This document shows, piece by piece, positions 18,411-49,128 of a stretch of DNA of 64,000 bases. This stretch comes from Ptychodera flava (Eukaryota; Hemichordata; Enteropneusta; Ptychoderidae): positions 34,041,388-34,105,387 of the forward strand of contig NC_091928.1 of the NCBI RefSeq assembly GCF_041260155.1, in the 5' to 3' direction. The notes beneath the pieces are model-generated. The model saw nothing but the letters and a program-made list of their open reading frames with translations. It was not told the origin of the DNA and searched no databases. The number at the start of each line of letters is the position of its first letter. Position 1 is the stretch's first letter. Made by a program: the position numbers and the translations under genes.

Positions 18411-18429
18411 TGTCGACAGCCAACACGGC

Positions 18430-20450: not shown

Positions 20451-20579
20451 AATTAATGATTTTAGAAAAAATGGATATATATTAAAACGACTACACACAA
20501 TTTGATGAGATTTGCTACAAATGTTGATTCACACCAAGATATATCAGCTGTGAAAGATATTAAGGGGTGGCATAAAAAA

Positions 20580-21370
20580 CAATGGAGAATTTGTATATTT
20601 AATGAACCTTCCTCATTAGGGATATATATCTGATTTGACTTGATCAAAATGGACAAAACATGGTATGTATATTGAAGATACTATGATTTAACATTATCAT
20701 TCAGTATTGTTATTTCACTAAACTCTTAATTTGCATATTTAATGAACTTTTAAAATCAGGGATATTTATTTGAATTCACTTTACCAAATTGATGAAACTT
20801 GCTAAGTACATTAAAGATACTATGATATAACATTTTTGAAAATCATTAAAAGTTTTACTTCAGCCAATTCCTTATTTACATATTTATTGAACTTCACTAA
20901 TTAGTGATATATCTGAATTGACTCGAGTGAAGTTGATGAATCTTGCTACATATATTGAAGATACTATAAACAACATTATTGAAAGTCATTAAACTTTTTT
21001 ACTTCAGCCAATTCCTAATTTGCATATTTAATGAACTTCCCTCATCAGAGATATTTATCTGTATTGACTAGACCAAATTTGATGATACTTGCTATGTACA
21101 TTAAAAATACTATGATATAACATTGAAAGTCATTAAGCATTTTTACTTTAGCCAATTCCTTATTTGCAAATTTAATGAACTTTCCTAATTAAGGATATTT
21201 ATCTGTCTTGACCAGACCAAAGTTGACGAACTACTTTGTACATTAAAGATATTATGATATGACATTATTGAAAGTCATTTAACATTTTTACTTCAGCCAA
21301 TTCCTAATTTGCATATTAATGAGAACATTTCAGTCAATTCCTAATTTGCATATTTAATGAACTTTCTGAT
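20580..21370 (+). repeat. Second array of the ~150-bp repeats
   Basis: Five or so further copies of the unit described at 19075 follow in the same orientation. The array ends near 21370 and is followed by the 'tcatatctggt' end motif at about 21532. Confidence 0.85.
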
Positions 21371-25027: not shown

Positions 25028-25278
25028 TTATTGACTAAAGATTCCATATGTCCACTCAATGAACTCGTTTACGATTTTCACTCCTGCGAATTTCTCTTCC
25101 TCATCTTCAATTTTTTCCATCCTAGCTTTCAACGCACGGATTTCAGCATCCTTTTCTGCATTCTCTCTTCGGAGTTTATCGCACTCGGACTGAAGTTTTT
25201 CAGCTCTTGCGATGACCATTTCAGGACGTTCACTCTCGTCTTCCTTTGGTGCCGGCGATGGTGCTCCTAAAATTTGTC
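25028..25278 (-). CDS. GT-like/TRADD-N gene, terminal exon 6 (coiled coil)
   Basis: Reading on the minus strand, a 'ccatctag' acceptor opens this exon with GA, completing a glycine codon begun by the G left from exon 5 (phase 1). It encodes QILGAPSPAPKEDE, a Pro/acidic linker, then a heptad-rich stretch (EKLQSECDKLRRENAEKDAE...ALKARMEKIEDEEE) typical of a coiled coil, and ends KIVNEFIEWTYGIFSQ with a TGA-type stop at 25028. A coiled-coil tail after a TRADD-N domain would favour self-association. No downstream exon is needed. The family of the tail is not recognised. Confidence 0.7.
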
Positions 25279-25489
25279 CTAGATGGTTTGGTGAGAAAAT
25301 GAAATGATAATATTTCATTCAATTTTCGAATTCAAGTAAATAAGGCAGGATACACGTTGAAAGTGAATTTTGTAAAAGTCATATGATACTTGATATAAGG
25401 GTTCAGTAAACGTTTCAATGGCTATAAATGTTTGCAATGTAATCTGTGTGCTTATTAAGAGTTAAATACAAAAGTAAAGTTTACATTAC

Positions 25490-25865
25490 CTTTCTTTAAG
25501 AGTTCCATCTTACACTTGTCGTATTCTTCAATATCAAGAGCGGTTTGTATCTCTAGATACAGCGCAGCAATTTTCTTCAATGTCTCCTTTAGTAATAGTG
25601 ACAGACGTGACAAGTTCCTTGAGTTCTAACGATTCGTGTTGTTGCAACAGAAACTCCAACTCGTCTAACGTCTTGCAGTGAATTATATATATTATGCTGT
25701 TGGTGCTCACACCTTCAAGTATCAGGTCCGAGTGACTTGAGTTCACTTGTTCTGGTACAGCCTTTTGAACTTCATCAAGTTTATGGTAGGCCAGTTCCAC
25801 GTAGGTCATCTTGAGTCCTTTCTTAGGAATACCAGCGTTGATCTTCATGCGTAATTTCTGTCGAC
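25490..25865 (-). CDS. GT-like/TRADD-N gene, exon 5: TRADD-N-like domain, one-base frame break
   Basis: Acceptor 'acacacag' at 25867-25866, donor GTAATG after 25490. The first part encodes RQKLRMKINAGIPKKG, a helical segment, then NSIIYIIHCKTLDELEFLL, the 'beta strand plus HC.T.(D/E)(E/A)LE' signature of TRADD-like N-terminal (TRADD-N) domains. The expected last helix, ALDIEEYDKCKMELLKK, is present but one frame over. The exon is 376 nt, one more than a multiple of three, although both flanking junctions are phase 1. An extra base near 25598-25612 would explain both. This is either an assembly error, a disabled allele or a pseudogene. TRADD-N domains occur in NLR-like and other innate-immunity proteins as adaptor/effector-associated modules. 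Confidence 0.7.
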
Positions 25866-26089
25866 CTGTGTGTTGTACAAAAGAATGCATAGAAAATATA
25901 CACCAAAGAAACTCATTTGACGGTGCCATTAATGGTTCTTTCAGGGATAGAGGCAAACCCACTTATATCTGCGAAAACCCATACATGTTTTCTTTTGCTT
26001 TGTGGTGCAACTTCCCATAGCATTGATATTTTAGGAGCGTCGCATTTACTCAACCTGTTTACCTCACGGTATCATTTTGTTTTGTAAAC

Positions 26090-27830
26090 GTTCATTCAAT
26101 TTTCAGTAATCAGATTGCCCAAGACTGATATATTGGTAGGTTCAGTAGGTTTACTATTTTTGCATTACCAATAGTTTGAATTTCGAAGAGATAAAAGTGG
26201 AAATTTATCAAATTACCATATCCTCGGTTTCTTTTTCACCTACTTTGAACACATGAAAAAAGCATAAGTCGACTCTGACTTGGACAAATTATGTAAAGTT
26301 ACTCATTTTGTTCATGAATTACCGTACGACCACATTTCAATTTTGATCGGCAATAAAATAATTAAAATGGGAACGTCCCTTGCCTATCATGATTAAATCA
26401 TATTTTTCTAAATTTCAGTCTTTCGATTGCTGCGACTAAAGAGTGAGAATTGACAATGCAAAACCAAATAGCTGGTTTTATAAACTCAAGTTTCAAATGA
26501 GCTATTACATAGCTGAAGTTTTTGACCTACGTAATATGTTACAAATGCCAATATTGGGTGTTTTTGGCCCGTAATATAGTAAACTATATAAAACTATAAT
26601 TAATTTCATATGCTCTTCTGTTTGAAAACGTTTAGTGTCATCTTTGATGAGAAATATTGCTTTTGACAAAAGTAAGTAGGTAACATGCAACGCCACATGT
26701 ATATATCACGGACTTATGATGCAGACCTCTTAACCAGAAGAACGGATAACAAAAAATGTATCAACTAATTGAAATTGAAATCATAATCTCCTGAAAGTGA
26801 TCAACAATGTCATATCGGGTCTCACCAAATCATTCCAATTATAACGTATCTACAAATTCTAGTGATATCTCTTTGGCGTTGCATTAAATTGAGTTATCTA
26901 TCTTTCATTGTAAAATTGTATTATAATATGCTATTATCGACCGTGTCGTGTACATAGATACTTCATGACACAGTCACTAAACTAAACTAACTTTACCATC
27001 TCATAGCTAAAGTAATCGTGTGAAAAAACGGAAAACCGATGTTATCATCCATAGCATATTTAAACAAGTCGTTCACTGATAAGTTTTTGATCACAGGTGG
27101 CAATTTTACAGCATAATGAAAGGGTAACAGTAAACTGGTCAAATCAACTGGAAGGATGAAAGCACTTTGCCATACCTGTACGTTCCTCGTCAACGTTGCC
27201 GAAATGACCGGCATCTCGTTTACCAAGTACCCCAACTGTAACACAAATGATGTCGTAGAATCAGTATTTATTGAAGTGACATAATTGCAACGACTTAAAC
27301 ATAACACTAATATCGTATGATGACATTCTGTATAACTTGTCTTTTGCAAAATATTCATCAGCCTATAGTTAGAGGCTGGTTATTGCTCCTTTTTAAAATT
27401 ATGAAGCGTTATTATATTTGCATATGATATCAGAAAGTCTCTTGTGAAGCTACAAAATTATAATAACAATGGCTTCCAAAGGTTATAGCTTAAACAGTCC
27501 GTAATTTCTTGCTATATGTGAATATAGTCAATCAGTTCACATAGATTCGTCGTAACACTGTTAACTAATCAATCCTATAAACTAAAGTCATTTCTGTGAA
27601 GAATGAAAGCCATGTACACTATTTTATATTATCAATCACAAAAGAGTTTACCATCACTCGAGACTAAAGGTGACAGGGTGATAGGACTCTGGTCAATCTA
27701 ACTTGAAATGCGCTAAGCACTTTACTTGGTCTGAAAACTGCCTTTTCGATATTATAACCATACATACGGTAAATTGCTAATATTTACATTTTTACTAAAT
27801 ACGTATATTGTGTCTGCATTCTTTCAACAA
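26090..27830. repeat. Segmental duplication, copy 1 (partner 29345-31680)
   Basis: Starting at 'cccaagactgatatattggt' and continuing through the 60-nt exon to 'cgcatagattcgtcgtaaca'-like sequence, this segment matches 29345-31680 in the same order and orientation, with moderate divergence. Copy 2 additionally contains a 770-bp inserted element. The duplication carried an exon with it. Confidence 0.85.
27176..27235 (-). CDS. GT-like/TRADD-N gene, exon 4: 20-residue repeat, copy 2
   Basis: Acceptor 'gtgttacag', donor CAG/gtatgg. The exon is exactly 60 nt and phase 1 on both sides, so it can be gained or skipped without changing frame. In the frame dictated by exon 5 it reads GVLGKRDAGHFGNVDEERT plus a split glycine. 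Exon 3 encodes an 11/20-identical segment, so this is a tandemly duplicated exon. The larger frame 26993-27358 covering it reads the wrong phase. Function of the motif is unknown. Confidence 0.6.
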
Positions 27831-27889
27831 CAGCGTTTGTTGTAATGGTAACTAACCAAAAAAACGCCAACAAACTGCACTTGTACCAT

Positions 27890-28190
27890 GATACGGATAG
27901 TAAGTAGGGATAGTACTGTCACTATGAAAGTTATGGCCTGAGTGTAAATGGCCTACAGTCTCCTATACCAAAATTTTCTCCGCTGCCACAAAAATGCCAT
28001 ATAGCCGAGTGGAGGGTTTGGTCATGGTCAAGCATGCAATAGGGATAGTAAACACTTGCTTCTTGTGTCACGATGACACATTTCTGACCTGAGGGTAAAT
28101 AGCCTTCGATCTAATGAACCAATAAGTCTCCCCGCTACCACAAAATGTCACATGGCCTAGTGAAGATTTTGGTAATCGTCCGGTATGAAA
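27890..28190 (+). repeat. Diverged ~135-bp tandem duplication
   Basis: 'cctgagtgtaaatggcct...tccgctgccacaaaaatg' (about 27935-28010) is echoed by 'cctgagggtaaatagcct...cccgctaccacaaaatg' (about 28090-28150). No coding content. Confidence 0.65.
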
Positions 28191-28499
28191 GTAAGTTTGA
28201 AATCATCATATTGATATTGTAAACAACTGTTTTACAAACTTACAGCTTACAATCTGATGGCAGCAGTTTACAATCTATATATAACTGTAGCATTTTATGA
28301 AATTGCAATGAATAAGAACTATACCAGTGTTAAAAATAACGAGTTTCACAGATGTAAAGCACATTACAGGGTTTTTTACTAATTCTATATCTTAAATAAC
28401 TCAGACATATGGCTAGTTTTCAGTGTGTTTGTGTTCTGTGTATCAGCATCAGTTTCTTATTTAACTCCCTGCAGCAGGATAGAATGCGAAGTACTTTAC

Positions 28500-29071
28500 T
28501 TAACAAAAATGGCTTAAAATGACAAAACCAAGGGTTCCTTCAAATAAATGTAAGTTTTGTAAAAAGGAAGTTGAAATATCACATATTTTATATGACGGTG
28601 AATATATAATGGAGTACTGAGATGGTTTATAATTGGGTGTCAAAGTTGGTCTTAATGTTTTTCCTAGTGCAAGACAAATACTAATTGGAGATAAGTACCT
28701 CTTCACGTTGGTTAATTTTCTAATTTTGATTGCAAAACGTCATATTTATCTGGCAAAGCTTGAAAATCAGAAACCAACTCATCTTATTTCTGAATCAAAA
28801 GATTACTACAAAAGGTAGAATATTGTATAGCGGTCAAAAGGAACAAATTGACTTTCCACAACAAGAAATGGAGTGGTATTCTAACAACTCTTATTCCTAG
28901 AACCACAATACAGTGAATTTATTACATGTAGTTGGAAAATCTTATATGCGCATAGTCTCTGAGACTTCTTGATTGACATTTATTGATATCATTACATTGT
29001 AATGTTTGTAATACCCTCCCACTATTGAGATTGTAACTATTTTGATATCCTCAATAAAAAATTGTTAAAAA
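28500..29071 (+). pseudogene. LINE retrotransposon 3' end (ORF2 C-terminus), degraded
   Basis: Frame fragments read CKFCKKEVEISHILYDG, a CxxC...H pattern like the zinc-binding end of LINE ORF2, followed one frame over by FPSARQILIGD and TLVNFLILIAKRHIYLAKLE, the typical 'ILxG...LxNxxIxxAKxxIxxxKL' tail of LINE reverse transcriptase ORFs. Stops interrupt it. A non-coding tail with AATAAA ends at about 29071. This is a 5'-truncated, dead copy between the two duplicated segments. Confidence 0.65.
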
Positions 29072-30391
29072 GGCTTATGTGTGCAAGTAGCATTGTTATT
29101 GTCCAAACATCCATTCAAGCATGGACTTGAATTAATTTGCCTACAATAACAATGCTCGAGCCACATTTTGTGGCTACTTTTACTTTCGATATACTTAATG
29201 ATTTAGGATTTTGTGGGTCGTAGAAAAAGATTGGCGTTAACTACACAGAGCAAAATTTTGAAAACATACAAAGTCATATGACTGTGCTAATTCAAGTGCC
29301 CTATCGAAATTATATCTTTCATGTTGTTTTGCAAATGAACGTCATTACATTTCATAATCCGGTAGCCCAAGACTGATATATTGGTAGTTTATTCTTTTGT
29401 ATGACCAATAGTTGGAATGTGGGAGAAATTAAAGTGCAAATTTATAAATTAACATATTTCTTGGTTTCCTTTTCGACCCATTCTTTGAAGATTTCAAAAG
29501 AAAACATAACTCCACCCTGACACTCAAATTATGTAAAGTTTCTCATTTCATTCTTGAATTACCGCACGCAATTTGATCGGCAATGAAATAATTACATTGT
29601 CAAAAAGAACCATGTTCTTGCATGTCATGATTAAATTATATCCTTTTAATTACAGTCTTTAGATTGCTGCCACTAAAGAATGAGTATTGACGATGCAAAA
29701 AAAGATAACGGTTTTACAAACTCTAGTTTCAAAGGAGCTATTTCATAGCATAAGCTGGTGCCAGGTTTTTGGCCTAAAGAGATTGTTATAAATTGTTATA
29801 AATGTTTTCCCTTAATATAGTAAACTATATTAACTTTAATTATTTTATATTCTCATCTGTTTGAAAACGTTTGGAGTCACCTTTAAAGAGAAACATTGCT
29901 TTTCAAAAATATAAGTAGATAACATGCAACTCCAATTTATCTATTACCATTTACAGTTATTAGAATGTAGAGTTATTTAACACTGACTTGTAATACAGAC
30001 TTCTTAACCAGGATAATCTTCTGAATGATCAACAATGTCATATCAGGTCTTACTTAATTTTCCATATATACAACTTTGAGTGACATCTATATATTTACTG
30101 TTGTATTTTGATTTACATATGTTATATTTTGAAATTCTACTATAATATTGCTACTATCGACTGTACCACGTACATAGATCGATACTTCTCATTTCACAAT
30201 CACAAAACTAACTCTACTATCGAAAGGCTATGGTAATTCTTGTAAAGAACGAAAATCCTAGGTTATCTCATCCTTACCATATCTAAACAAGTCCTTCACT
30301 GATAGTGTTGATATTGAAGTCTTTCAATTTCGAGCGCCCTACTACCTTAACTAGTCAAACAAATCAAAAGGATGTGAGTACTTTGCCACAC

Positions 30392-30451
30392 CTTTATGTT
30401 CCTTGTCACCATCGCCGAAATGATCAGCACCTCGTTTACCAAGTGTCCCAA
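30392..30451 (-). CDS. GT-like/TRADD-N gene, exon 3: 20-residue repeat, copy 1
   Basis: Acceptor 'ctgttacag', donor AAG/gtgtgg, 60 nt, phase 1-1. After the phase-1 end of exon 2 it reads GTLGKRGADHFGDGDKEHK. Identical positions with exon 4 include the LGKR.A.HFG core, and both splice sites have been kept in both copies. Whether both exons are used together or alternatively cannot be seen. Confidence 0.55.
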
Positions 30452-30696
30452 CTGTAACAGGAAGGTTGTCATAGTATCAGTATTTGTAAGATGCAGAACT
30501 TGAAGATTACACAAATGTCATACGATGTTATACTGATAAAAATGACGTCAAAACTTTTCTATTGCAGGATATTCACCAGCCTATAATAAAAGATTGGTTA
30601 TTGTTTCTACCAAAAATTGAATAGCGTGGCTATACTTCCATGAAATGTCAGAAAATCGCTTTTCAAAGCAACAAAGTTGTAAGAACAATGGTAGGA

Positions 30697-31469
30697 AGCC
30701 GTCATTAATTACGGCTTGTGGGTCGGAGGAACCTGGGGGTCACTCAAAATATTGAAAGCTACATCGGGGATGCTCAAATGTGGAGAGAGGAGGAGGATTA
30801 CTCAATATATAGTGCAAAATGAATTAAAACACCTAAGATTGCATCAATTCACAAATTAATTTCTCAAAATTTTCGATGCGAGAGAGGGTTCTAATATGTT
30901 TACTTTGTTAAATACAAATTGAAAACACCTCTTAGATTGCGCCAGATTGCACCATTCCACCCATCAATTTCTCAAAATTTTCCACACAAGTGAGGGAGCA
31001 ATCCCTCTGACACTTCCCCCTCAGCCTCTCGCGTGTTCTCTCCCTGTACTTTCAAAGTCTGCCTTGTCAGATATCTTAGTGAAAACCCTGTCATGGTACC
31101 CATCCAAAGTAAACGATACTATGCGGTTGGATACTAGTTACACCATGAGCTTTTATATTTACTTATATCTGTATTTTGTTGTGAGTTTGAATTTCAGTTT
31201 GGGTTTTTACTGTTTTTAACCGCCGTGATGTAACCGATGATAATCGAACAGGGTACATCAGGATTTGAAAGGTCTTTACTATTTTTGCTCTATTTTTGTA
31301 AATTTACAAATACATTTTATTTAACTTTTTGAGTTGGGGAGGTCAGTCAAAATTTATGTGGTAAAGTGGGGATTACTCAAATTTATTCTGGTTTGCAGAG
31401 GGGGTACTCTAAATTTCAGAGTTTCCAATGAAATTCCTTCAACCCCCCAGGCTATAAATAATGACGGCT
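30697..31469. mobile_element. Non-autonomous TIR element (AGCCGTCATTA ends) with G-rich repeats
   Basis: Left end AGCCGTCATTAATTA, right end TAAATAATGACGGCT (inverted). Internal sequence has repeated '(g/t)gggga...actcaaa(t/a)tt' blocks. Copy 1 of the surrounding duplication has 'aatggcttccaaagg' at the corresponding site, so that paralogue serves as an empty site and dates the insertion after the duplication. No transposase seen. Confidence 0.65.
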
Positions 31470-31689
31470 GCCAAGGCTCCCTTATGTGTGCATAAAGCCA
31501 GCCAATTCGCATAGATTCGTCGTAACACTTTCATCTAATTAATCTTATTGTCCCTAAACTATAGTAGTTTGCGTGAAGAATGAAAGCCAAGCACATTCTT
31601 ATACATCATCAATCACACAGTCATAGATCAGATCAGTTTAAATAAGCCCGCGTGTTTATCACTTGGCCCGAATACTCAAGATTGGCTTG

Positions 31690-32340
31690 AAACTATATCG
31701 ATGATGCGATGAAATTTCCCCCTAGACAGACATGTAAGAGAAAATATATCTCAGATGAAAGCGTTGAAATTGTAATTAGTATTAATGGTATAGTCGCAGT
31801 GATAGTGCACATAAAGTAAACGCATATTATTTGACTGATGTAATTTTCCCCGCCAAAATTTTAATGCGATATTTTACCAATTTTTGTGAACTTTTCTATA
31901 GTTTTTTTTTTCATAATTTTTGATAAAATGGATCGGCCACAAAATTTTGGCAAACGTCAGAAAAAATGACTGTGGTATATTTTATAAAGGTGAAAAAATA
32001 GACTTTAGCGCTCAAAGGGTTAAAGTGTCATCCGTCATCCAAAGTCTCTGTCACGATTCATCAATTTACCGCCATGCGTCATTCAGCTAATAAACGACTT
32101 GGTACAAGTCTGGACAACTGTTACCAGGATAAATATGAAAATGCTATTTGCGTACTTTCATCTTCAGGAAAATGTAAAGGGGTGCCGAGAGATCAGTGAT
32201 GGTATAGAATAGTGGCTAAAATTGTTTAGTGAACATGGATGAGGTTTGTTGTAAAACAAACACATTAACTTGCCCTATTCGGGAAGAAGCATACATTTGT
32301 TTCCAGTTAGGGTTGTAAGCTGCTCAAATATACGTTTCTC
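31690..32340. other. No gene recognised
   Basis: AT-rich intron-like sequence of the minus-strand gene model. No motif was seen. Confidence 0.4.
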
Positions 32341-32532
32341 TTGGTCCATGGCCCTGGGAAACAGAAAGATTTGGATGAATCACCTATCCCACAAACGTAT
32401 ACGATACCATCATGGCCAGTCAACATCTTTGTAATAGACCCTAAATTTTCCTACCATGATGATAAACTTTGGGTTCTTCTAGATTTATCTTCGGTAGTTC
32501 TAAGCTTGAAAGATCGTCACCGCTGGCTATAA
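32341..32532 (+). other. Unrecognised 63-codon frame
   Basis: It reads VNIFVIDPKFSYHDDKLWV near its middle, which looks more protein-like than background. No family is recognised and no splice partner is proven. It lies opposite the intron of the minus-strand gene. Confidence 0.2.
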
Positions 32533-32879
32533 AATAACAAAGACGACATTGGTTTGAATATGATGATTCATCGGTATTAATGAAAATGTAATACGTAAGG
32601 GGCAATATTGATATTACAAGAATTATATCTGTTTTGATTTTTTAGTATTTGTGCATTAACAAATAATGATGGCGAGCTTTATCATGTATAATCGTCATTT
32701 TATGGTAACGGTACTTCAGTAGAAATATCAATTTGAGTACATCGCAAATGAAAAATAAAAGACCTGTCTGAAAACAATAATATCTTCGACGAAAACCTAC
32801 TTGTGTGCCCAAAGCACAAATCTCAATTTTAAATAGCAATGATATCGTTGTTACAAGTAATACTTGAAGTGGTAAATCT

Positions 32880-33069
32880 TTGTGCCATCAACCACTTTGC
32901 GTTACCAGTCCTAACGAAACAGTCTTAGCTGTATCCACACTCCTTAGCATTTTATGCGGGAAAGAGTTGCCGAATTACGTCATGTTTTCCCTATCGGCGT
33001 TGTACATCGGCAAGAGTCTCGAAGAGGATGAGCTTATCGATCTCTCGGACCACAGTCAAGGAGAATTAC
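32880..33069 (+). pseudogene. Possible gene fragment, faintly Lon-protease-like
   Basis: The frame reads SPNETVLAVSTLLSILCGKE and LPNYVMFSLSALYIGKSL. This aligns without gaps to the 'PSAG.TM.TALLSL..NKP' strand-helix of Lon (S16) proteolytic domains, but the catalytic Ser position would be Asn. The part after 33070 belongs to an inserted transposon. With only about 35 residues this is weak; it may be chance. Confidence 0.2.
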
Positions 33070-33563
33070 CAGGTGCAGCCAACGAACAATGCACTTTTAA
33101 AAAGGTCCTTACTATAATAAGATATATTGTGCATGAAAAATAATGTGAACTGACTAATTTTAAGTCTAGAGGGTAATTAATTAGCTGTTCATAATTTGCC
33201 CTCCCACAGAAAATTTTTCGACCTACCCTCCCACACTCAAACTTCATTTTTACCCACTCCCCACTTATTTTTGCCTGTTTCCCCTCCCCACTGTGAATTT
33301 TTGAAGCTCCCTTACCCTGTGGCGAAAAAAACTTGCCAATTCCCCCTTCCCTGGAAACAATTCCCCTCAAAAAGTTTTTCGCCAAGCCCTGTCCCCAGGA
33401 CAATTAACCGATATCGGCCATGCCCTACAAAAAAACCCCTAAAATTTGCTCCCCTACCACCTAAAAACATGTCCCCTGCCCTAGCAAAATTAAAATTTCC
33501 CTTGCCCTCAAAAATTGCTCCTGGAATAGCTTTTTCGATGAATAGCTCCGTTGGCTGCACCTG
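33070..33563. mobile_element. TIR element with pyrimidine-rich minisatellite, 494 bp
   Basis: Inverted termini CAGGTGCAGCCAACG and CGTTGGCTGCACCTG are perfect over 15 bp. Flanks 'aattac' and 'aattat' match at 5/6 and may be the target duplication. The interior is a diverged tandem repeat of about 40 bp built on '(c)ccctnccc' and 'aaaattt'. The 115-122-codon frames inside arise from this repeat and are not genes. Confidence 0.75.
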
Positions 33564-34445
33564 AATTATCCTCGCCTGTGCTTGACCAAGGTCGCAGTGG
33601 CCAACGTGGATTTCTTTATTTATGTAACACGTATAAAGCGCGCTGGATTGGTCTGCCATTTTTTTCAGGTCCAACCCTCTCCGTCATGCAATATTGCAGG
33701 CGGTTCCCACACGGGCTAGTTCGTGCACATGGGAGACTGTAGTCGAACGAACGCCCCGAAAATGAACAGGTCATTGACAATGACATAGTCCCCGCTTATA
33801 ATTGGGAATTAGTCAGTGGAAGTAACTAAATTGAAGTTAATATATCAATATGAAAAACGAAATGAGACCTATCTGCCTCTGATGCACATATTAGATCGCA
33901 CTGCAAACAATCAGACATAAGTATGAATGGCATAGGGTTATTTCGTTTTACCAAGTTGAATAGAATTAGGTATGCCATGTACTGGCTCTTGAAATGTGAA
34001 AATGCAACCAATCTGCAGGAAACTGGTCAAGACATGCCTAAGTAATGGCTGTTAATATTAAGAAAATTAGAATGCCAGATATAAACCAAAAATGCCCCTA
34101 CGTTCACTACAGAGGAGACTACAATTAGCTATTGATGCTGCAAAGATTTTCTTTACTGTCAAATGTTTTGTATGATCAACACCTGCAAGTTTCATCAGAT
34201 TTATTGCAGTCATTCAGGATATAGATCACTAATTACAGACAATCTTTCTCTGTTCAGAGACCCAGCTTTACTGTAAAAAAACTCTGGGGTTGGTCCATAC
34301 TATGGTGGTGAAAATGTAAAGCCAATCTAGACTGTCACTCTAATTATGCAAGGTCATAACATCAGTAATGATAACTTTTTAATTATCTTTTCATCATTTT
34401 TATTTTCAACTCAGTATAAAATGCATTGTTATTGATAACATTTGA
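33564..34445. other. No gene recognised
   Basis: No motif was seen. The interval is within the large intron of the minus-strand gene model. Confidence 0.4.
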
Positions 34446-34600
34446 ATTCTAGTCCAGACCAGAAGTCAGCTTTCAACAATAACAATGCAGTTTACACATG
34501 TATGGGATGAGTTGACAAGCTAGTCCAGACCAGAAGTCAACTTTCAACGATAACATGCAGTTCACACATGTATTTGATGAGTTGACAAGCTGAACACTGA
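34446..34600 (+). repeat. Two-unit tandem repeat, ~75 bp
   Basis: 'ctagtccagaccagaagtca' followed by 'ctttcaac(a/g)ataac' and 'gatgagttgacaagct' occurs twice. Related 'aggtccggactagaagtcaa' lies near 47930 and 'agtccagaccgaatgcg' near 9200. Confidence 0.8.
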
Positions 34601-34689
34601 GTATATCAACATGCTTTGGAAGGTAGAACAATGAATTATGGTTCACCTTCAAAATAAGAATGGTGAAAATATTATCAAAAGTTTTTTAC

Positions 34690-35110
34690 TGGCTTTTTAA
34701 ATAAGTGAATTAGTAATTAATCGACAGGATATTGCTAAATGTCATTGCATTTTAACAATTAAAACACTGTGAGATCAACACATTTACCAAGTTTCATCAA
34801 ATTTGATGCAGTATTTCTGGACATATCACACTAATTTGAAAAGGTTATCGAATATTCAAATTTGCAATTGATTGACATGATATTGCCTAAATGTCTTTTA
34901 CACTGTTACAGTACTGAGAGCTCAACATCTGTACCACGTATCATTAAATTTGATGCTGTATTTCTGGACATAGTACACTAATTAGGAAAAGTCATCAAAT
35001 GAGCAAATTAGCAATTATTTGACATGACACCCCTGGATGTCTCTGCACACTATTACAGCTGTGATGTATCAATATCTGTACCAAGTTTCATGAGATTGAG
35101 TCAGCATTTC
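34690..35110 (+). repeat. Diverged ~150-bp repeat units
   Basis: Three units share 'accaagtttcatcaaatttg'-like text, 'ggacatat(c)acactaatt' and 'aaattagcaattatttgaca'. Layout resembles, but is not the same as, the arrays at 19-21 kb. Confidence 0.65.
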
Positions 35111-35159
35111 TTGAGAAATCACGAATAATTCAAGTGTCTTTACAATTTACAATGGTAAA

Positions 35160-35705
35160 ATACAAAAGTAGTTTAGGATTCAGATTGAGACAATAAGAGT
35201 CTGAATACCAGACACCAAGAGTAATTTTGGATTCAGATTCAGAGGATGTAGCTCAACTATAAAAAAGAGAATCTGTCAGGGCCGAATTTGATTGTATTGT
35301 GAAATCAAGTGGCCTACATCAAGGGACCATCGGGTACAATATTTATGCCAGGTTCTTAAAATGAGAAATTGGTGGTGACAGATGCATAGATGGACACGAA
35401 TTCAGATTCGGATTCAGACAATATGAGTCTGAATACCATAAACCAAGGGTAATTTTGGATTCAGATTCGGGTGATAGCTCTGAATATACAAAAAAACGGA
35501 ATCGTTTAGGACCAAATTTGATTGTTTTGTGAAATCAAGTGGCGTGCATCAAGAGACCATAGGGTACTATACTTGTGGAAAGTTCTTAAAAATTGTTTCA
35601 CAGATGTCTGAGAAAAGGTTGGTGACGGATGCACGGACGGACGGAAGGGACCTAATCTATTAGTCACCCCCAGGACTCAGTCTGGGGCGGGGAGTAATAA
35701 CCACT
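35160..35705 (+). repeat. Two ~235-bp repeat units plus hairpin-type end
   Basis: 'gtaattttggattcagattc' and 'gtgaaatcaagtggc' occur in both units. The segment ends 'gacggacggaaggg' followed by a 'cacccccagga...tctggggcggggag' inverted repeat, as at 23040-23120. Confidence 0.7.
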
Positions 35706-35995
35706 AAAATATAAAACAAAACCAAAAATGCCAAAAACTAAAAAATATTCCGGGCTACAGTGAGCTCAACATAGCCTGCGAACTTCTTTCCCTCCTTGAA
35801 CTGAACTTTAACCAGTCTTATTATATAATACGAGCACCAAATTGTGGAAAAAATATCAATCGTAGATTATAGATACTTCGGCTAAATTGTACATGACAAG
35901 ACAAACGGTTTTCTGATCGCCATTTACATGTAATAGGCAAGAAAAGAAATAGAAAAGGCGAATGGAAGATGCTGTGGTGCCAGCTTTCTACTTAC

Positions 35996-37298
35996 TGATG
36001 ACAAACTCTGCTGACTGTTGAATAGCAAAACATATGTGTCCAGTTCGAATATCAGTCTTTATTTCTTCTTCGAATGCCCTATTGCAAGACTCAGATAGTT
36101 GCCCAGCTGACTCCATTAAACAGGCCTTTACTTTCAAAGCTGACTGTACACGACAAGGAAAGTTACAGAGCATGTGCACGATTTTCTGCCTCAATTCCTG
36201 GGTATCGTCAGGATTCATGGAAGTCAGCATGTGTTCGATATTCACCTTATTAGCGACTAACTTCTTGATCAAATTGTGACAGGGGGAATATCTCTTGGTA
36301 ATGAGAGGTATTCCTACGGCCATTACAGAAAGCAGAAGGTTCAGAGAATTCATCCCAGGGGATTCTGGGATAAGAACCAAGTGGGAACTTTGCAATTCCT
36401 GCTCTATTTGCTTAACAGTTGGCAGACACATCGGTATCACGTTCAGATGTGAGTGAGGTTTTAACTTCTTTCTGATCAATCTATCTTTTCCTTCAGGTAC
36501 ACCAAGGATTTTCCATTTTGGTGGCGTTTTATTCATGGATTTAAAATCTTCTGCAACTAAATTCATAGCATTTGCTATCACTCGATGACTTCTTAGCTCA
36601 TCTACATCGTGTTCTTCGAGAAACGATAAAATTCTGAAAGTAGGATTATCGTTTTCAGGAAGTTTAGGGGGCTTTAAATCGTAATATCGCTTGCTCGGTT
36701 GTGCCATGATTTGGACCAGGGTACATGTAGGTATGGAGTGCATCTGAAAGCAATATTCAAAAGTGTTCTGATCCATGGAGATCAAGATCTTTGCTTTTGA
36801 TAATTCTTCACTAAACATATCGATACGTTTCTCCAATTCGTGCCTATCGCAGCCGATAATACCCGGAATTTCAAGAATTTCATCTAGTGGCCATAGATTT
36901 GCAATGTAGTATTTCGCATTTCGGAATTCTAAATCCTTGATGAACATAGCTGCTTCTGATGTTGTGAGTCCAAAGCCGAGGACTACATCTATATCGCGTG
37001 CACGTGTTTTCAGATTTTGAAAATGTGCTTCATGTGAAAGTAACCAAGTTGAGTCTGGTTTTGTTCTCTGCAAGGACCCCCGTGGCTCTGGGCAAATCAA
37101 TTTAACGTCGAATATTTTAGCCTCCTTTTCTTCTTCATGTGTCTTTTGTAAGACAGTGCAGTAAGTTGACATTCGAAAGGAACGAAAAAAACTAGCTAAA
37201 ATTCTTAAGGCTGTTGGAATACCTCCCTGAAAGGAATGCCCCCACCTGTCACTTATGATCAATACTGACGCTTCACGCTTCCACGTACGCCTGTTAAT
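35996..37298 (-). CDS. GT-like/TRADD-N gene, exon 2: glycosyltransferase-B (GT4)-like domain
   Basis: The acceptor 'cttctcacag' at 37300-37299 and the donor ATCA/gtaagt (after 35996) bound a 1303-nt exon that starts phase 0 and ends phase 1. Joined to exon 1 it gives about 434 residues. An N-terminal Rossmann strand and loop reads SVLIISDRWGHSFQGGIPT (residues ~17-35), the usual donor-fold start of GT4-like proteins. A C-terminal LVLIPESPGMNSLN then LLLSVMAVGIPLI (from ~residue 314) corresponds to the sugar-nucleotide site. In active GT4 enzymes this site holds an E-x7-E pair; here the second Glu is Asn, so catalysis is doubtful. Similar GT-like modules are fused to innate-immunity domains in marine invertebrates. 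The apparent upstream ATG at 37352 lies in intron sequence. Confidence 0.75.
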
Positions 37299-37583
37299 CT
37301 GTGAGAAGAATGACAGAGATAGATAAAGGTAAGACAATAAACATGTGATCACAAAATGTGAGAAATGCTAAGAACATCTTGTATTGTTTAGGCCCAACGT
37401 ATTACGAAAATGAAATGCACTGTCGTGTTAAAATTTGTTAAATAACATTGTTTTGATGGCGACATTTTGAACCTATACTCAGAGCATTTGTTTAACAGCG
37501 TAGATTTGTCAGCGTTGATAATATATAGCTTTTCTGCATACAAAGATTACATCGCTTACTCATGTTAGAGTAAATCGATGCTT

Positions 37584-37586
<3 letters not shown>

Positions 37587-37659
<73 letters not shown>

Positions 37660-37674
37660 CATACATACATACAT
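37587..37674. repeat. (TA)n followed by (CATA)n microsatellite
   Basis: Alternating TA to about 37656, then five 'cata' units. It sits in intron 1 of the minus-strand gene. Confidence 0.95.
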
Positions 37675-38126
37675 ATGATGTCATCCAAGGAAATATTTAA
37701 TGTTACACTCTATCAGAAACTGTGTCTTGTACTACATAATTTTTTGATCAAATGGCTCGTGCGGTTTACTTTGCCTAATAACAGTGATATCATGTCAAAT
37801 CTGTTATTGGGCTGCAGTCGAATCAGTACATGACAGGCCCCTCATGGAGCACACGTTGTATATGCAACCTTTCTATTGCATTAAAAAGTTAATAATTCAC
37901 AGCTTTCTATATCAGCGCAATTGCTATCAAAATGCAAGCCGACCAAGCTTTAACTTGCTCTGAAGTGCGTCTACGTCGTGATATTCAAACTTGACTGCAG
38001 GGAATTTCTCAGCAATCTTTTTAGACATTGTTCTTATCGTCTCTTACAGCCGTAATAAAGATTTGATAAGCAGCTTGCACGAATACACTTTGACTCTTTA
38101 CTCCCTTTCCCTCTCCCGCACTGTCT

Positions 38127-38129
<3 letters not shown>

Positions 38130-38171
<42 letters not shown>
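38130..38171. repeat. (TC)n microsatellite
   Basis: About 20 TC units mark the left edge of duplicated block A. Confidence 0.95.
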
Positions 38172-38172
<1 letters not shown>

Positions 38173-38410
38173 ATAGACAGACAGAGAGAGACACACACAT
38201 GCACGTGTCCCCATTGTTCCATATTGTAAATTTTAACCTTTAAAGACGACGACTACATTCAAACACGATAGGGGAGGGAGCAGGACGAGTTCTTTGCTAC
38301 AACGTACATGTTTTTGATGCATAAAGTGGCAAAATATTTCAATTGTTCATTTTTTTCTCCTGCACCCTCCCCATATGGTTATTCCCACACATCAAGAGTC
38401 TTTCGCTTAC

Positions 38411-38428
38411 CTCTACTGCAGCATCCAT
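38411..38428 (-). CDS. GT-like/TRADD-N gene, exon 1 (start exon, MDAAVE)
   Basis: Minus-strand reading gives 'gtcaaaATGG', a good initiation context, then six codons (MDAAVE) and a GAG/gtaagc donor. The phase-0 end fits the phase-0 start of exon 2. The exon and its surroundings are exactly repeated at 41933-41950. No clear TATA box was identified upstream. The very short start exon makes this call depend on the splice signals. Confidence 0.55.
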
Positions 38429-41343
38429 TTTGACCCAGTGCGGCGCGATGGCCGACTCAGTATCTAATCGACTGACGACGTCGACCTAGCGTGGTTGCGA
38501 TCAGTTCATTAATAAGTGTGTCAAAGAGTTAATGTTTAACGTTCAGATTTACCGACGTATTTGTGATACACTGCATCCCATCCACAGGAGATCGCTGGTA
38601 TCTAAGCAGGCATATATATAAAACGAATATTTCATTATTTATTTATATCACTGTTATATCATGGAAAGGCAATAATATTGTAGAGAAACGCGGTCAATGA
38701 TCCGTTTTCCCGCGGACAGTTACAAGCTGCCAGCATAGATACCTATGACCTATTACCTAATTTGAGTCCTTTCGTATAGCGTTCCAGTGTTAGATCTTGA
38801 TATACATGAGGAGCGATTTGCCTACCTGATCACTGACTTTTTCGTCGAATATCGAGAACAGTTCTGGCGTTTGGTGGAAAATGGTGGGGTACTGGCTAAT
38901 GTCGCAGTTGAGAGTACTCCCTTCTTAATTCTGTAAAAAAAATTGCTAAGGGACAAGCCAATTTCTTCAGCCTAGGGGAGCGGCGCATCCATGTACTGGG
39001 GAGGGAGGTAGCCCTGTCTTGACTATGGTGTATATGCAGGTCGAGATATTTACAACATATTATTTCACTTTTTCACAAATATCAATTCAAAAGCTGTTTG
39101 AATAGAAATGAAATCGCACACGTTAGGAAATATCGTATAATTTGCCAGTTACTTATTGTTCTCTGTATAGACTTCTCTTCTTTGTCAGTTTTAAACTACT
39201 ACAAGTAGATTGGTGTCCCGTTACAATTTTCGAGACATGTAATAGTTTGTAAAGTTACTCTCTTAACATAGGCATCCATACATATAAGTGCATCACTGTT
39301 CTTACGATCTGATACAATTTTGACATATCATAGTTAGAACAAGAAAATGTTGACGAAATACACGAAAACGTTAAACGGCTTGTAAAATGTACAACACAGC
39401 GACGTTTTACATAGTTTTTTTTCTAGTATGCTTGATTGTTGCATCTAGTCCAGCTCCTTTTTCGCATGATAACAGCTCAGGTTTTCAGCATGGCCTATAC
39501 GTGTGTGAATACATTGCTATACGATTATATTGATATGAGTATGTGATTTTATAATTATAAGTATGTGTATATGATATCGATGTTGCACTGAATTGACAAG
39601 TGAATTCAAATGGACTACAATCCAATACCAACAATGCTATCTTGCGCCTCATGGACGGATATTCCGACTCAAACTTTTACAATTCTTTTCTGATCTACTA
39701 CTTGTGGGGGTTAAAGCTCTTGCTGCAAGAAAACTTTTAACCGGCTTAATGTTTCGAAATTCGAAAATTACGTTTTTCTCCATACAGTTAGCACAGGGAT
39801 GGCAGCCATTTTGAATTTTAAATATCGGTAAATCTAGGATTATTTGTTTCTCTAGTACCAAAATTTGGAAGGTGACCCCCCGTTTTTATTCTTGATTTTG
39901 AAAGAGAATGGTTGAAAGATTCCCTAAAGAGAGGAAAAGTTTAAGTGCAAGTCTTTCACGTTGACAAGGATTTAAAGGCAATCAGTTGTTTTGTATCTAT
40001 TGCTATATGTATGGTGACCTGACGGAGACGCTATTGTATTTCCTACTGTTGTGACTGGTATATTTTGCATAAAAGTAATGTATGACATAAATGATTCTAC
40101 ATCGGAGACATATTTCAATGGTAACTCTGGCACACTGGTCTTACCAAGGGTTCAAGCTTATCGTGGTTTGAACATGGGTACATTTACTTTACCAAGGCCA
40201 CTGCACCATGATTGCTTTCCATCCCATCGAATACAATCTAGCTGTCATCATCCATCTCAGACTGATACATTAGCATAGGCCTGCCATTCTGGTATCGAAG
40301 TCTCTTAAGATACATAGCGCCTCGAAAACGCGAGACTTAAACTTATGCTCAAACTTACCTCAAGGAAACTGTCAATAATTATCTTTCAAAATCAAGCATA
40401 AAAAATCAAGGGTTGGGCCACAGTGCTAATTCTGGCAGCGGAGAAATAAATTACCCTTTCTATATTTACCGATACTTGAAATTCAAAATTGCCGCCATCC
40501 CTGTGGTGTCTCTATGTGGGGAAATATTTGCGATTTTCATAAAATTAATCCAGTCAAAACTTTATTTACTCCATGTGCTTAAAGATGAGCTCCCACAAGT
40601 GATAAACCAAAAGAATGTTGTGGAAGGTTTAGGAGTCCGAGTATCCGTTTGCGGGTCGTACTCGTACTAGGTCTTGCTTTGTTGGATGAGCTGAATGATC
40701 AAAATATTGAATGAGCTCACACACCATTATTGGCTGAGATGAAACAATACCAAAATAAAAATATGCTCATTTCGCCAGGGATTAACAATTTAGATGAGGT
40801 ATAATGTTGTTTAAACAGACAAGGGAAGCCCCCCCCCCTCACGTGTCTGTTTCGCAGTAAATAAGTAACAGAAGTGTTTTTTTATTTTTATGAATCCATT
40901 GACATCATCATGGGTGACTGAATTAAAGATTGACCAAATGTATGTGACTAAGATGAAACCTTTGCTAACGATCCCTGTGACCAGAAAAGCTGCCTGGATA
41001 CAATATATAAGAGAAAAACAAGAGATTGCGATTAACATGGAAGTAAACTCTGAATTTTAATTTTCCCAACATTTCTACTGATACATTTTCTCCGGCCCCT
41101 AAATTTTCTTATGTAGGCCCTAAATGAACAATTTTAGTGAAAAGTGACTTTCAGGTCTCTGGTTCCATTTTGTCTAACTAATTATGCACGTTCATAAATT
41201 TGTTTCTCTGGTAAAAATGAAACCATTGGATACTAAAACATTGTTTTCTTTCAGATACAGAGGACAGTAAAATTAAATCAAGCTTTTCCGCACTGTCAGA
41301 AATATAATTTTTTCCGAATAATTTGAATAATTTGCTTTTTCAG

Positions 41344-41640
41344 GTTTTTAGTAACACATACACTGGTGATTCGTTTTCATTCAACTTTAAGAGAAGTAAG
41401 GTAGGAACAGTGGTGACGAGTTTGAAGACAGTCTTCGTGAATTCATTAATTGTGCCAACAAGAAGTTCATGTTTAATGAAAAAGACATCCTGCCCTTCCC
41501 TTCTCTGTCCGGACACGTATACAAGATACAACCTTTGGAAATTTTTGAATCAAGTGATTTCCCTCTGTACTTTAAAAAAAAATCATGCCCAACCTCCGGC
41601 AATTGTTCAATTTCAGAAGATACCCCTCCCCACAGTAACG
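41344..41640 (+). pseudogene. Exon-like remnant in block A, family unknown
   Basis: After a 'tgctttttcag' acceptor the sequence reads FSNTYTGDSFSFNFKRSK; one frame over it continues FEDSLREFINCANKKFMFNE and GHVYKIQPLEIFESSDFPLY. The sister copy at 45728 preserves GHVYKIQPLDIFESSDFPLY. Conserved text on both sides of frame breaks suggests a once-coding exon duplicated with the block. I do not recognise the family. Confidence 0.4.
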
Positions 41641-41932
41641 CTTGGTTTTTCTATGTATACCACACGGCGGCAGCTATGTATCGAACCACACGTAACTGAT
41701 AGACGGACAGAGAGATACACACGTGTCCCTAGTTGTTCCATATTGTAAATTTTAACCTTTAAAGACGACGACTACATTCAAACACGATAGCGGAGAGGGA
41801 AGCAGGACGAGTTCTTTGCTACAACGTACATGTTTTTGATGCATAAAGTGGCAAAATATTTCAATTGTTCATTTTTTTCTCCTGCACCCTCCCCATATGG
41901 TTATTCCCACACATCAAGAGTCTTTCGCTTAC

Positions 41933-41950
41933 CTCTACTGCAGCATCCAT
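41933..41950 (-). CDS. Duplicate start exon (MDAAVE) in block B
   Basis: Identical 18-nt coding segment, identical 'gtcaaaATGG' context and gtaagc donor to the copy at 38411-38428. It could splice over about 4.6 kb to exon 2, providing an alternative promoter, or be a leftover of a partially duplicated gene. Confidence 0.4.
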
Positions 41951-44269
41951 TTTGACCCAGTGCGGCGCGATGGCCGACTCAGTATCTAATATTATTCTGT
42001 AAATAGATGGTTATTTTCGACTGAAGACCTAGCGATGGTTGCGATAAGAAATTCATTAAATGTGTGTAAGTGTGTCAAAGAGTAATTGTTTTAACGTTCA
42101 CATTTACAGACATATTTGTGATATACTGCATCTCATCCATAGGAGATCGCTGGTATCCAAGCAGGCATAAAACGAATATTTCATGAATTATTTATTCATA
42201 ACACTGTTATATCATGGAAAGGCATCAATGTTTTAGACAAATGTGGTCAATGATCCGTTATCCACGGACAGTTACAAGCTGCCAGGATAGATACCGATGA
42301 CCTATTACCTAATTTGAACAATTTCGTATAGCGTTCCAGTGTTAGATCTTGATATACAAGAGGAGCGAATTTGCCTACCTGATCACTGACTTTTTCGTCG
42401 AATATCAAGAAAGTTCTGGCGTTTGGTGGAAAATGGCGGGGTACTGGCTAATGACGCAGTTGAGAGTACTCCCTTCTTAATTCTGTAAACAAAATTGCTA
42501 AGGGACAAGCCAATTTCTTCAGCCTAGGGGAGCGGCGCATCCATGTACTGGGGAGGGAGGTAGCCCTGTTTTGATTTTGGTGTATATTCATGCAAGTCGA
42601 GACATTTACAACATATCACTTCACTTTTAAAAAAATATCACTTTCAAAAGAGACTATTTGAATAGAAATGCAATCGCACACTTCAGGAAATATCGTATGA
42701 TTTGCCAGTTATGTCCTGTTCTCTGTATAGCCTTCTCTTCTGTCAGTTTTAAACTACTAAATATATGTAGGCTCGTGTCCCGTGACAATTTTCGAGACAT
42801 GTATTAGGATGTAAAGTTGCTCTCTTAACATAGGCATCTATACATACAAGTGCATCACTATTCTTAGGATCTGATACAATTTTGACATATCATAGTTAGA
42901 ACAAGAAAATGTTGACGAAATACACGAAACGTTAAACGGCTTGTAAAATGTACAACACAGCGACGTTTTACATATAGTATGCTTGATTGTTGCATCTAGT
43001 CCAGCTCCTTTTTCGCATGATAACAGCTCAGGTTTTCAGCATGGCCTATACGTGTGTGAATACATTGCTATACGATTATATTGATATGAGTATGTGATTT
43101 TATAATTATAAGTATGTGTATATGATATCGATGTTGCACTGAATTGACAAGTGAATTCAAATGGACTACAATCCAATACCAACAATGTTGCACCTCGGGG
43201 ACGGATATTCCGACTCAAACTTTTACAATTCTTTTCTGATCTACTACTTGTGGGGGTTAAAGCTCTTGGTATAAGAAAACTTTTCACCGGCTTAGTGTTT
43301 CGAAATTCGAAAATTTTACTTTTCTTCATAGAGTTAGCACAGAGATTGGGGCCATTTTCGGTAAAATTTTGGCTTATTTGTTTCTCTAGTACCAAAATTT
43401 GGAAGGTGACCCCCGATTTTTATTCTTGATTTTGAAAGAGAATGGTTGAAAGATTCCCTAAAGAAAGCAAAAGTTTAAGCTTATGTCTTTCACTTTCGAG
43501 GTGCATACTACCTTAATTTATCGAGTATGTCGACAAGGATTTAAAGGCAACAGTTGTTTTGCATCTATTGCTATATGTATGGCGACCTGACGTAGACACT
43601 ATTTCCTAGCTGCAATTGTGACAAGTAGGCCTGTATTTTGCATGAAAGTAATGTATGACATAAACTATTCTACATCAGAGACATATTTTAATGGTAACTC
43701 TGGTACCCTTGTCTTACCCAAGGTTCAAGCTTATCTTGGTTTGAACATGGGTACGTTTACTTTACCCAGGCCACCGTACCATGATTGCATTTCCATCCTA
43801 TACAACATGTCACCATCAGTGTCAGACTGTTAAAATAGCATAGGCCTGCCATTCTGGTATAGAAGTCTGTTAAGATACACAGCGCCTCGAAAACGCGAGA
43901 CTTAAACTTTTGCTCGAACTTTCCTCAAGGAAACTGTCAACAATGCTCTTTCAAAATCAAGCCTAAAAACAATCAGGGGTTGGGTCACAGTGCAAATTCT
44001 GGCAGCGGAGAAATAAATTACCCTTTCTATATTTACCGATACTTGAAATTCAAAATTGCCGCCATCCCTGTGGTGTCTCTATGTGGGGAAATATTTGCGA
44101 TTTTCATAAAATTAACCCGGTCAACACTTTATTTACTCCATGAGCTTAGAGATGAGCTCCCACAAGTGATAAACCAAAAGAATGTTGTGAAAGGTTTAGG
44201 AGTCCGAGTATCCGTTTGCGGGTCGTACTCGTACTTGGTCTTGCTTTGTTGAATAAGCTGAATGATCAA

Positions 44270-45105
44270 AATTATCGAGCAGCTTTTCTCATTCCGTGGT
44301 TTCGCCTAAGAATTGAAGCAAACAGAGGGGATGAAAACAAAACAATAAACACCCTGAAAGTAAACAAACACACAAATATAGGTGCTTCAGAATGCTTTTG
44401 AAATCGAGTTTTTGTGCTCAACCTGCGATGTGAAAGCTTCCGCGTGTTTACATTGTATAGGCTATAAAACTCCCTTCACATACGACATTTTATCGAATGA
44501 ATATTTCGTGTTTCAGTGGATTTTTAGAATGTCGACAGTGGCCTTCGCCGGTCAGTGAAAGTCCCTGGGCACAACTTCGTGCCGTCGACTCTCGGTTGTT
44601 GGGAGAAAGCACAACCCACGATACTTGCCACAGAGGTCGCGGCAGTATTTTATGCAAAGAAGGCACATGGACTGTCGAGAGTCTAGTGGAACATGTACTT
44701 CGATATTTTCAGATAAATAATCCGGCTTTCCTAAGCTTCACCATTAATCACAGCTATTAAGTATCTTGATTTCTAGAAAACATATGAAAAGCGCCTATTT
44801 AAAATCAACAGTTAAGGTATGTCAAAGTGGACTTATATCTGTACGTATTTCTATAGAAATTCTATTTTGTTTTTCTGGCATTTACCGCAACGGTACCTCA
44901 TCATTGCTTATATTTTTACACCTTAGAAAGTGTTGTTTAACTGCATAAGGATCACTGTTTCCAACATGTCCCCAAGAAAGATCTGCATATGAAAACGCAA
45001 CCTTGGTAACGTCCACCTAGTGAAGAATTATTAGGATGAGCTCGCGCTGGTGACGTGGTTCTCTGCATCTTCGACTCTTAGCATAATAATTTAGTGCAGC
45101 CAAGT
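44270..45105. other. Segment present only in block B
   Basis: At the equivalent place block A goes directly from 'gctgaatgatcaaaat' to 'ttattggctgagatgaaaca'. B has ~830 bp in between, including an 87-codon frame (44497-44760) of unknown nature. Either an insertion in B or a deletion in A; no terminal repeats are visible. Confidence 0.7.
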
Positions 45106-49125: not shown

Positions 49126-49128
49126 AAC

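What the first reader, a model, noticed from the sequence alone, without database searches (positions are those of the whole stretch)
25028..38428. Glycosyltransferase-like plus TRADD-N plus coiled-coil gene
Six minus-strand exons join with consistent phases (0, then 1-1-1-1) into a protein of about 690 residues: MDAAVE, a GT4-like domain, two 20-residue repeats, a TRADD-N-like domain and a coiled coil. TRADD-N domains belong to NLR-type and related conflict systems, and GT-like modules are seen fused to immune domains in invertebrates. The exact architecture with the 20-residue repeat is not one I know as described. This is the best candidate for a new immune-type receptor or adaptor in the window.
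Basis: partly seen in the sequence, partly recalled or inferred. Interest (0 to 1): 0.75.

Follow-up and report, generated by a model that had tools for sequence, protein, structure and literature searches.

The report
Acorn-worm GT4/TRADD-N-type immune gene, broken tail
This stretch of acorn-worm DNA holds a gene of an immune-type family already described in marine invertebrates; its sugar-transferase domain seems to have lost its catalytic residues, and its predicted signalling tail is interrupted and not part of the public gene model.

Summary
The window is Ptychodera flava (hemichordate): a public 442-aa P. flava protein matches the large exon at 100%. The GT4 part is firm: PF20706 GT4-conflict, 63.6 bits, E 2.2e-17. 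The 690-residue six-exon protein is not supported as written. The public protein ends in exon 2, two codons past the proposed donor; no database protein of the lengths searched matched the downstream exons. The TRADD-N exon is below Pfam's cut-off (16.5 against 23.7 bits), and the last join is out of phase, so the frame breaks there. The 20-residue repeats lie in an intronic duplication without coding signal. GT4 before TRADD-N was described in hemichordates, cephalochordates and cnidarians in 2021 (PMC8195603). New here: four residues invariant in 6 of 6 bacterial conflict-GT4 domains, including both glutamates of E-x7-E, are replaced in both P. flava proteins found, although that loop is the most similar stretch between them. 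Best reading: a pseudo-glycosyltransferase sensor gene with a relict or damaged TRADD-N/coiled-coil tail; a new member of a known kind.

The parts
38411..38428 (-). Exon 1, MDAAVE, ATG to GT donor
   Evidence: joined to exon 2 in public protein P0001
41933..41950 (-). Second identical copy of exon 1 with the same donor; possible alternative first exon
   Evidence: lies in the 38172-40705 / 41698-44272 duplication
35996..37298 (-). Exon 2, GT4-conflict domain (434 codons); the public CDS continues to the stop ending at 35988
   Evidence: PF20706 63.6 bits, E 2.2e-17; ORF 35988..37367; P0001 100% identity
36261..36395 (-). Remodelled GT4 active-site segment, residues 308-352 of P0001; no E-x7-E
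   Evidence: alignment with bacterial conflict GT4s; conservation and positions of E
32455..32526 (-). Candidate 24-codon exon 3, phase 1-1 (my addition; speculative)
   Evidence: one of 15 of 207 candidates that pass the same loose splice-site score
30392..30451 (-). Candidate exon 4, first 20-residue 'repeat'
   Evidence: best simple splice-site score of 207 candidates, but no coding constraint seen
27176..27235 (-). Candidate exon 5, second 20-residue 'repeat'
   Evidence: among the 15 candidates; no coding constraint seen
26072..27472 (-). One copy of the 1.4-kb intronic duplication that carries the 'repeat'
   Evidence: 70.2% to 29319-30691 by blastn
29319..30691 (-). Other copy of the 1.4-kb intronic duplication
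25490..25865 (-). Exon 6, TRADD-N-like core followed by an internal change of reading frame
   Evidence: PF20694 16.5 bits, E 0.0074, cut-off 23.7; frames, phases
25028..25278 (-). Exon 7, charged coiled-coil-like C-terminus with stop
   Evidence: several coiled-coil Pfam families match below their cut-offs; its frame agrees only with the second frame of exon 6
38172..40705 (-). Copy of the 5' tandem duplication containing exon 1
   Evidence: 87.7% to 41698-44272; longest identical run 213 nt
41698..44272 (-). Other copy of the 5' tandem duplication

Best explanation
A hemichordate member of the GT4-conflict / TRADD-N immune family. Exons 1-2 encode an intact GT4-family protein whose catalytic residues have been replaced; I infer that it binds a ligand (nucleotide-sugar, glycan or modified host/invader molecule) without transferring sugar, as a sensor, decoy or scaffold. 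In the ancestral architecture the following TRADD-N domain and coiled coil would recruit or cluster signalling partners. In this sequence that tail is relict or damaged (frame change within the TRADD-N exon, not found in public proteins), so the locus most likely makes a GT4-only protein of about 442 aa. Shown: domain identity, replaced residues, frame change, public model. Inferred: loss of catalysis, ligand sensing, ancestral fusion, relict state.
For: PF20706 E 2.2e-17. P0001 = MDAAVE + exon 2 + SK. Of 39 positions invariant in 6 bacterial conflict-GT4 domains, P0001 keeps 12 and P0002 keeps 9; the R, the K and both E are lost in both, as R to F/C, K to R/T, E to P/P and E to S/S. P0002 has no E from 39 residues before SPGMNSL to 32 after it, so no realignment restores its pair; P0001 has E at -14, -12 and -1, none with a partner eight positions on. 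Of 398 windows of 45 residues, the two most alike between the paralogues (31/45) are those starting at 307 and 308, i.e. this loop; loop against the other segments pooled, 31/45 against 138/315, Fisher p 0.002. TRADD-N-like exon and coiled coil lie downstream on the same strand. Two tail searches found no protein (0 of 4548 candidates at E 1e-3; 0 of 850 at E 10). GT4 before TRADD-N is a described hemichordate architecture.
Against: No transcript data were available; the public model may be a truncated computational prediction. The frame change may be a sequencing or assembly error. The GT4 alignment is remote (25% identity to the single match of P0001 in 296 genomes), so individual positions outside the loop may be misaligned, and P0001 keeps a positive charge at the K position. 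Loop conservation against the N-terminal segment alone is not significant (31/45 against 69/125, Fisher p 0.12). Three of the six bacterial domains come from genomes found with a pattern that itself demands the two glutamates. Both AlphaFold models were poor (pLDDT 44.8 and 45.7), so no fold test was possible. Only two animal sequences were compared.
Confidence: 0.55

Rival explanations
1. An intact GT4-TRADD-N-coiled-coil receptor or adaptor of about 690-713 aa; the frame change in exon 6 is an assembly error and the public model is truncated.
For: Compatible phases 0/1/1/1 at the first four joins, same strand and known domain order. The second frame of exon 6 and the exon-7 frame agree with each other at the splice. 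The first 60-nt segment has the best simple splice-site score in the span.
Against: Exon 6 is interrupted in this sequence and the fifth join is out of phase; TRADD-N is below Pfam's cut-off even when read through with X (13.2 bits in the whole protein, 16.7 alone); no public protein carrying the tail was found; the public CDS reads through the exon-2 donor; repeats lack coding signal.
Confidence: 0.22
2. A stand-alone GT4 gene (exons 1-2); the TRADD-N-like and coiled-coil exons belong to a separate, unannotated or dead neighbour about 10 kb downstream.
For: The other P. flava GT4 protein found, P0002, also has no TRADD-N match; stand-alone GT4 expansions exist in Acropora; the span between exon 2 and exon 6 is about 10 kb with tandem repeats.
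Against: The TRADD-N frame of exon 6 fits the phase-1 donor of exon 2. I did not search for a separate start or promoter for such a neighbour.
Confidence: 0.17
3. The GT4 domain is an active enzyme that glycosylates invader or host molecules, as Kaur et al. propose in general for conflict GT4s.
For: Family membership and the published proposal.
Against: R, K and both E replaced in 2 of 2 P. flava proteins against 6 of 6 bacterial domains that keep them.
Confidence: 0.08

Closest known systems
GT4-TRADD-N proteins of hemichordates, cephalochordates and cnidarians (Kaur et al. 2021, eLife, PMC8195603; passages and sections 8 and 15 seen)
   Same: GT4-conflict domain first, TRADD-N-like domain after it; hemichordate host
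   Different: No LRR was identified after TRADD-N here, though the sequence beyond exon 7 was not searched for one; tail interrupted and unannotated; GT4 catalytic residues replaced; GT4 section 15 does not mention such a loss
Pfam PF20706 GT4-conflict
   Same: Nearly full-length match, profile positions 1-374 of 385
   Different: Lacks R, K and E-x7-E, which are invariant in the 6 bacterial members compared
Pfam PF20694 TRADD-like_N
   Same: Profile positions 3-63 of 69 matched; a serine lies in the presumed beta2-beta3 turn (TNS)
   Different: Below gathering score (16.5 against 23.7); N in place of the tiny residue before the serine; reading frame breaks just after

Membership tests
GT4-conflict (PF20706) | Score above curated cut-off over the domain length | tested here: met
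   63.6 bits against 26; P0002 51.9. The cut-off is loose: the family also passed it in 14 of 14 control genomes, so other GT4s pass it too
Active GT4 glycosyltransferase | E-x7-E motif and the R and K of the GR...KG stretch (R/K role recalled; EX7E as a conserved motif of PIG-A, a GT4 enzyme: PMC2446393, passages seen) | tested here: not met
   All four positions replaced in P0001 and P0002; 6 of 6 bacterial members keep them
Active GT4 glycosyltransferase | GT-B fold | tested here: inconclusive
   AlphaFold model pLDDT 44.8; alternating helices and strands only; no fold search run
TRADD-N (PF20694) | Score above curated cut-off | tested here: not met
   16.5 bits against 23.7, E 0.0074; none of 9 shuffles hit any family below E 0.05 (best 0.054)
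TRADD-N (PF20694) | uS motif in the beta2-beta3 turn (PMC8195603 section 8) | tested here: inconclusive
   Sequence reads TNS there: serine kept, preceding residue not tiny; strand borders from a low-confidence model
GT4-TRADD-N fusion protein | Both domains, with the tail, in one open reading frame | tested here: inconclusive
   The upstream frame reaches the TRADD-N core of exon 6 and then stops, so GT4 and the core could share one frame but not the coiled coil; public protein ends in exon 2
GT4-TRADD-N fusion protein | Both domains in one transcript | not testable with these tools
   No transcript data
GT4-TRADD-N-LRR architecture | LRRs after TRADD-N | not tested
   No LRR match at E 0.1 within the joined 713-aa protein; the sequence beyond exon 7 was not searched

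The most novel reading that the evidence does not exclude
In acorn worms a bacterial-type immune glycosyltransferase has become a pseudoenzyme sensor. The catalytic E-x7-E loop was rewritten into a new conserved motif (SPGMNSLxLLxSxxAxGIPL) that is now the best-conserved part of the domain, and genes with and without the TRADD-N signalling tail coexist.
Probability: 0.45. Interest if true: 0.5.

Novelty: new member of a known kind. Interest (0 to 1): 0.33.

Why it matters
Kaur et al. propose that animal conflict-GT4 domains may act by glycosylating invader or host molecules. If hemichordate members are pseudoenzymes, that does not hold for them, and the domain would be a binding module: a clear prediction testable with purified protein. 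It also suggests that conflict-GT4 annotations in animals should be checked for the catalytic pair.

Tried and rejected
The 20-residue repeat as a new protein repeat: rejected as unsupported, since 174 of 1391 windows of the duplicated block are as similar, 8 of 9 changed codons are nonsynonymous and the proposed frame is no better conserved; its good splice-site score is noted as evidence the other way. An exon 3 of my own (32455-32526): kept only as speculation, because 15 of 207 candidate cassette exons in the span pass the same loose score. Bacterial TRADD-N relatives for a profile comparison: none in 296 and 398 genomes of two phyla, and 0 of 14 controls rang, so this is uninformative. 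Solved-structure relatives: none for GT4 alone; one weak unrelated match for the two-sequence profile (E 0.33); three weak unrelated matches for TRADD-N. A scan of prokaryote genomes with the two-sequence alignment found no relative. Structure models: both of low confidence, so I ran no fold search. PADLOC: no match for P0001 or P0002. Rfam: nothing in the window at gathering scores. A small intron that would cure the frame change in exon 6: considered by eye and rejected as too short; not computed. Protein searches are limited by length (0.55-1.75 times the query: about 239-760 aa, 392-1248, 150-476), so a much longer GT4-TRADD-N-LRR protein or a tail fragment under 150 aa could have been missed.

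Bacterial comparison set: 6 domains aligned (L006, L007, L008, L010, L017, L018). Of the other fetched loci, L009 was left out as a partial match with a stop inside; L012 and L013 are partial and were not aligned; L016 is the same place as L007. One search aligned L006-L008, L011, L014, L015 and E. coli WaaG (L001), picked by a pattern that contains both glutamates, so it shows only where they align; L010 was asked for there but missed by that pattern. An earlier version of the script picked no bacterial sequence. L006, L007 and L008 come from genomes found with a pattern that demands the two glutamates, so their keeping them is partly by selection. L010 (in one of those genomes), L017 and L018 (from a family search of the phylum of another) were found by the family model and keep the glutamates too.
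Full report
Origin. The 434-residue translation of the large exon finds two proteins at E 1e-3 or better among 2292 candidates: P0001, 442 aa, 100% identical, and P0002, 375 aa, 47% identical over 77%; both are named as Ptychodera flava, each on a contig of 62,999,500 bases. The window is therefore taken to be this acorn worm. No whole genome is held for it.

What is there. On the minus strand I find MDAAVE (38428..38411), the GT4 exon (37298..35996), two 60-nt segments (30451..30392 and 27235..27176), a TRADD-N-like exon (25865..25490) and a coiled-coil-like exon (25278..25028), with AG/GT borders. A further phase-1 segment at 32526..32455 is possible but is one of 15, out of 207 candidates, that pass a loose splice-site score.

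GT4. PF20706 GT4-conflict matches profile positions 1-374 of 385 with 63.6 bits, E 2.2e-17, cut-off 26. P0002 matches the same family with 51.9 bits. The model is broad: it passed its cut-off in 14 of 14 control genomes. GT4 kinship is solid; closeness to the conflict branch rests on this model and on the downstream context.

The public gene model stops in exon 2. P0001 is MDAAVE, the 434 residues of exon 2, then S, K and the end: the coding sequence runs through the proposed donor to the stop ending at 35988. Two searches with the tail (residues 440-713 of the joined protein, and exons 3-7 alone) found nothing at E 1e-3 among 4548 candidates and at E 10 among 850. So I found no support for the fusion in public proteins of about 150 to 1248 aa. 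A missing prediction is not proof that no transcript exists.

TRADD-N. The exon scores 16.5 bits, E 0.0074, below Pfam's cut-off of 23.7. None of 9 shuffles of the exon hit any family below E 0.05; the best was 0.054. Its position after a GT4-conflict exon is what Kaur et al. describe, so I accept it as probable. Its open frame of 142 codons is not remarkable: 24 of 200 random first-order Markov sequences reach it. The frame that carries the TRADD-N core ends in a stop; a different frame of the same exon goes on to a helix-like stretch and fits the coiled-coil frame of the last exon. The gene is thus interrupted in this sequence, by a real change or by an assembly error.

The 20-residue repeats. 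They sit in a duplicated block 26072-27472 / 29319-30691. On a global alignment the block is 960/1324 identical; the 60-nt segments are 49/60, a value reached by 174 of 1391 windows, 80 of them without gaps. Of 9 codons that differ, 8 change the residue. The proposed frame keeps 11 of 19 residues; the other open forward frame keeps 12 of 20. In favour of exons: the first segment ranks first of 207 candidates on the simple splice-site score, the second is among the 15 that pass, and windows overlapping the first tie for the highest identity of the block, 51/60, with windows outside any exon. On balance nothing shows coding constraint.

Exon 1 twice. The 18-nt exon occurs at 38411-38428 and 41933-41950 with the same donor, inside a duplication of 2.5-2.6 kb at 87.7%. 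The stretch 38306-38405 just after the exon is 100/100 identical; the longest identical run, 213 nt, lies upstream. Alternative first exons are possible.

A dead active site. I aligned the domain with 6 bacterial PF20706 domains (315 to 440 bits). Of 39 positions invariant in all 6, P0001 keeps 12 and P0002 keeps 9. The R and K of the GR...KG stretch and both glutamates of E-x7-E are replaced in both. P0002 has no glutamate from 39 residues before SPGMNSL to 32 after it; those of P0001 at -14, -12 and -1 have no partner eight positions on. Yet residues 308-352 are 31/45 identical between the two P. flava proteins, against 69/125, 27/81, 32/76 and 10/33 in my other segments. I had chosen those borders by eye, so I slid a 45-residue window along the whole alignment: the best 2 of 398 start at 307 and 308. 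Against the other segments pooled the difference has Fisher p 0.002; against the N-terminal segment alone it is not significant, p 0.12. The pattern suits a rebuilt, non-catalytic pocket under selection better than decay. Caveats: remote alignment, two animal sequences, three of six bacterial domains from genomes found with a pattern that contains the glutamates, and no usable structure model.

What is known. Kaur et al. 2021 (PMC8195603; passages, section 15, section 8) describe GT4 before TRADD-N, with LRRs after it, in cephalochordates, hemichordates and cnidarians, and treat GT4 as a potential effector that may modify invader molecules. In one search only 12 of 32 places were shown, so I cannot say that the whole paper is silent on lost catalysis; section 15, read whole, does not mention it. 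Searches for TRADD-N with glycosyltransferase or invertebrate, TRADD with hemichordate, GT4 with TRADD, STING and amphioxus (three of four), GT4 with Acropora and immune, and inactive or EX7E glycosyltransferases with GT4 listed, besides this paper and related papers on conflict systems (PMC7159879, PMC12419801), nothing evidently on this animal family; I judged those from the listing only. The P. flava genome paper (PMC11175523) has neither 'TRADD' nor 'glycosyltransferase' in its main text (word search; not otherwise read).

Verdict. A real, largely ordinary member of a described immune-type family, with an overstated gene model. The point worth following is the apparent loss of catalysis in its GT4 domain.

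Noticed in passing
48554-54080 (+): LTR retrotransposon with 573-bp terminal repeats 99.1% identical (48554-49126, 53509-54080), borders TGTTATG...GTAACA and integrase matches PF17921 and, weakly, PF22938: probably a recent insertion upstream of the gene.
   Followed up: partly
46283-46996 (+): Open frame of 237 codons that matches PF10146 zf-C4H2 over profile positions 2-240 of 240 (251 bits), without an intron in the match: possibly a retrocopy or a single-exon gene.
   Followed up: partly
18429-21322, inverted relatives at 6227-7034; also 34766-35091: Tandem arrays with 144-147 bp units. An array in the large intron after the GT4 exon (34766-35091) has a 147-bp period too, but one search showed no match between it and the others.
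   Followed up: no
13506-14079: Tandem duplication of 284 bp at 98.9% identity.
   Followed up: no
40727-41633 and 45105-45971: Further duplicated segment (82.9%) next to the exon-1 duplication, suggesting repeated unequal exchange at the 5' end of the gene.
   Followed up: no
59349-61164 (+): Two long open frames (234 and 203 codons) without Pfam match at E 0.01, rich in S, T and charged residues: possibly exons of an unidentified gene.
   Followed up: no
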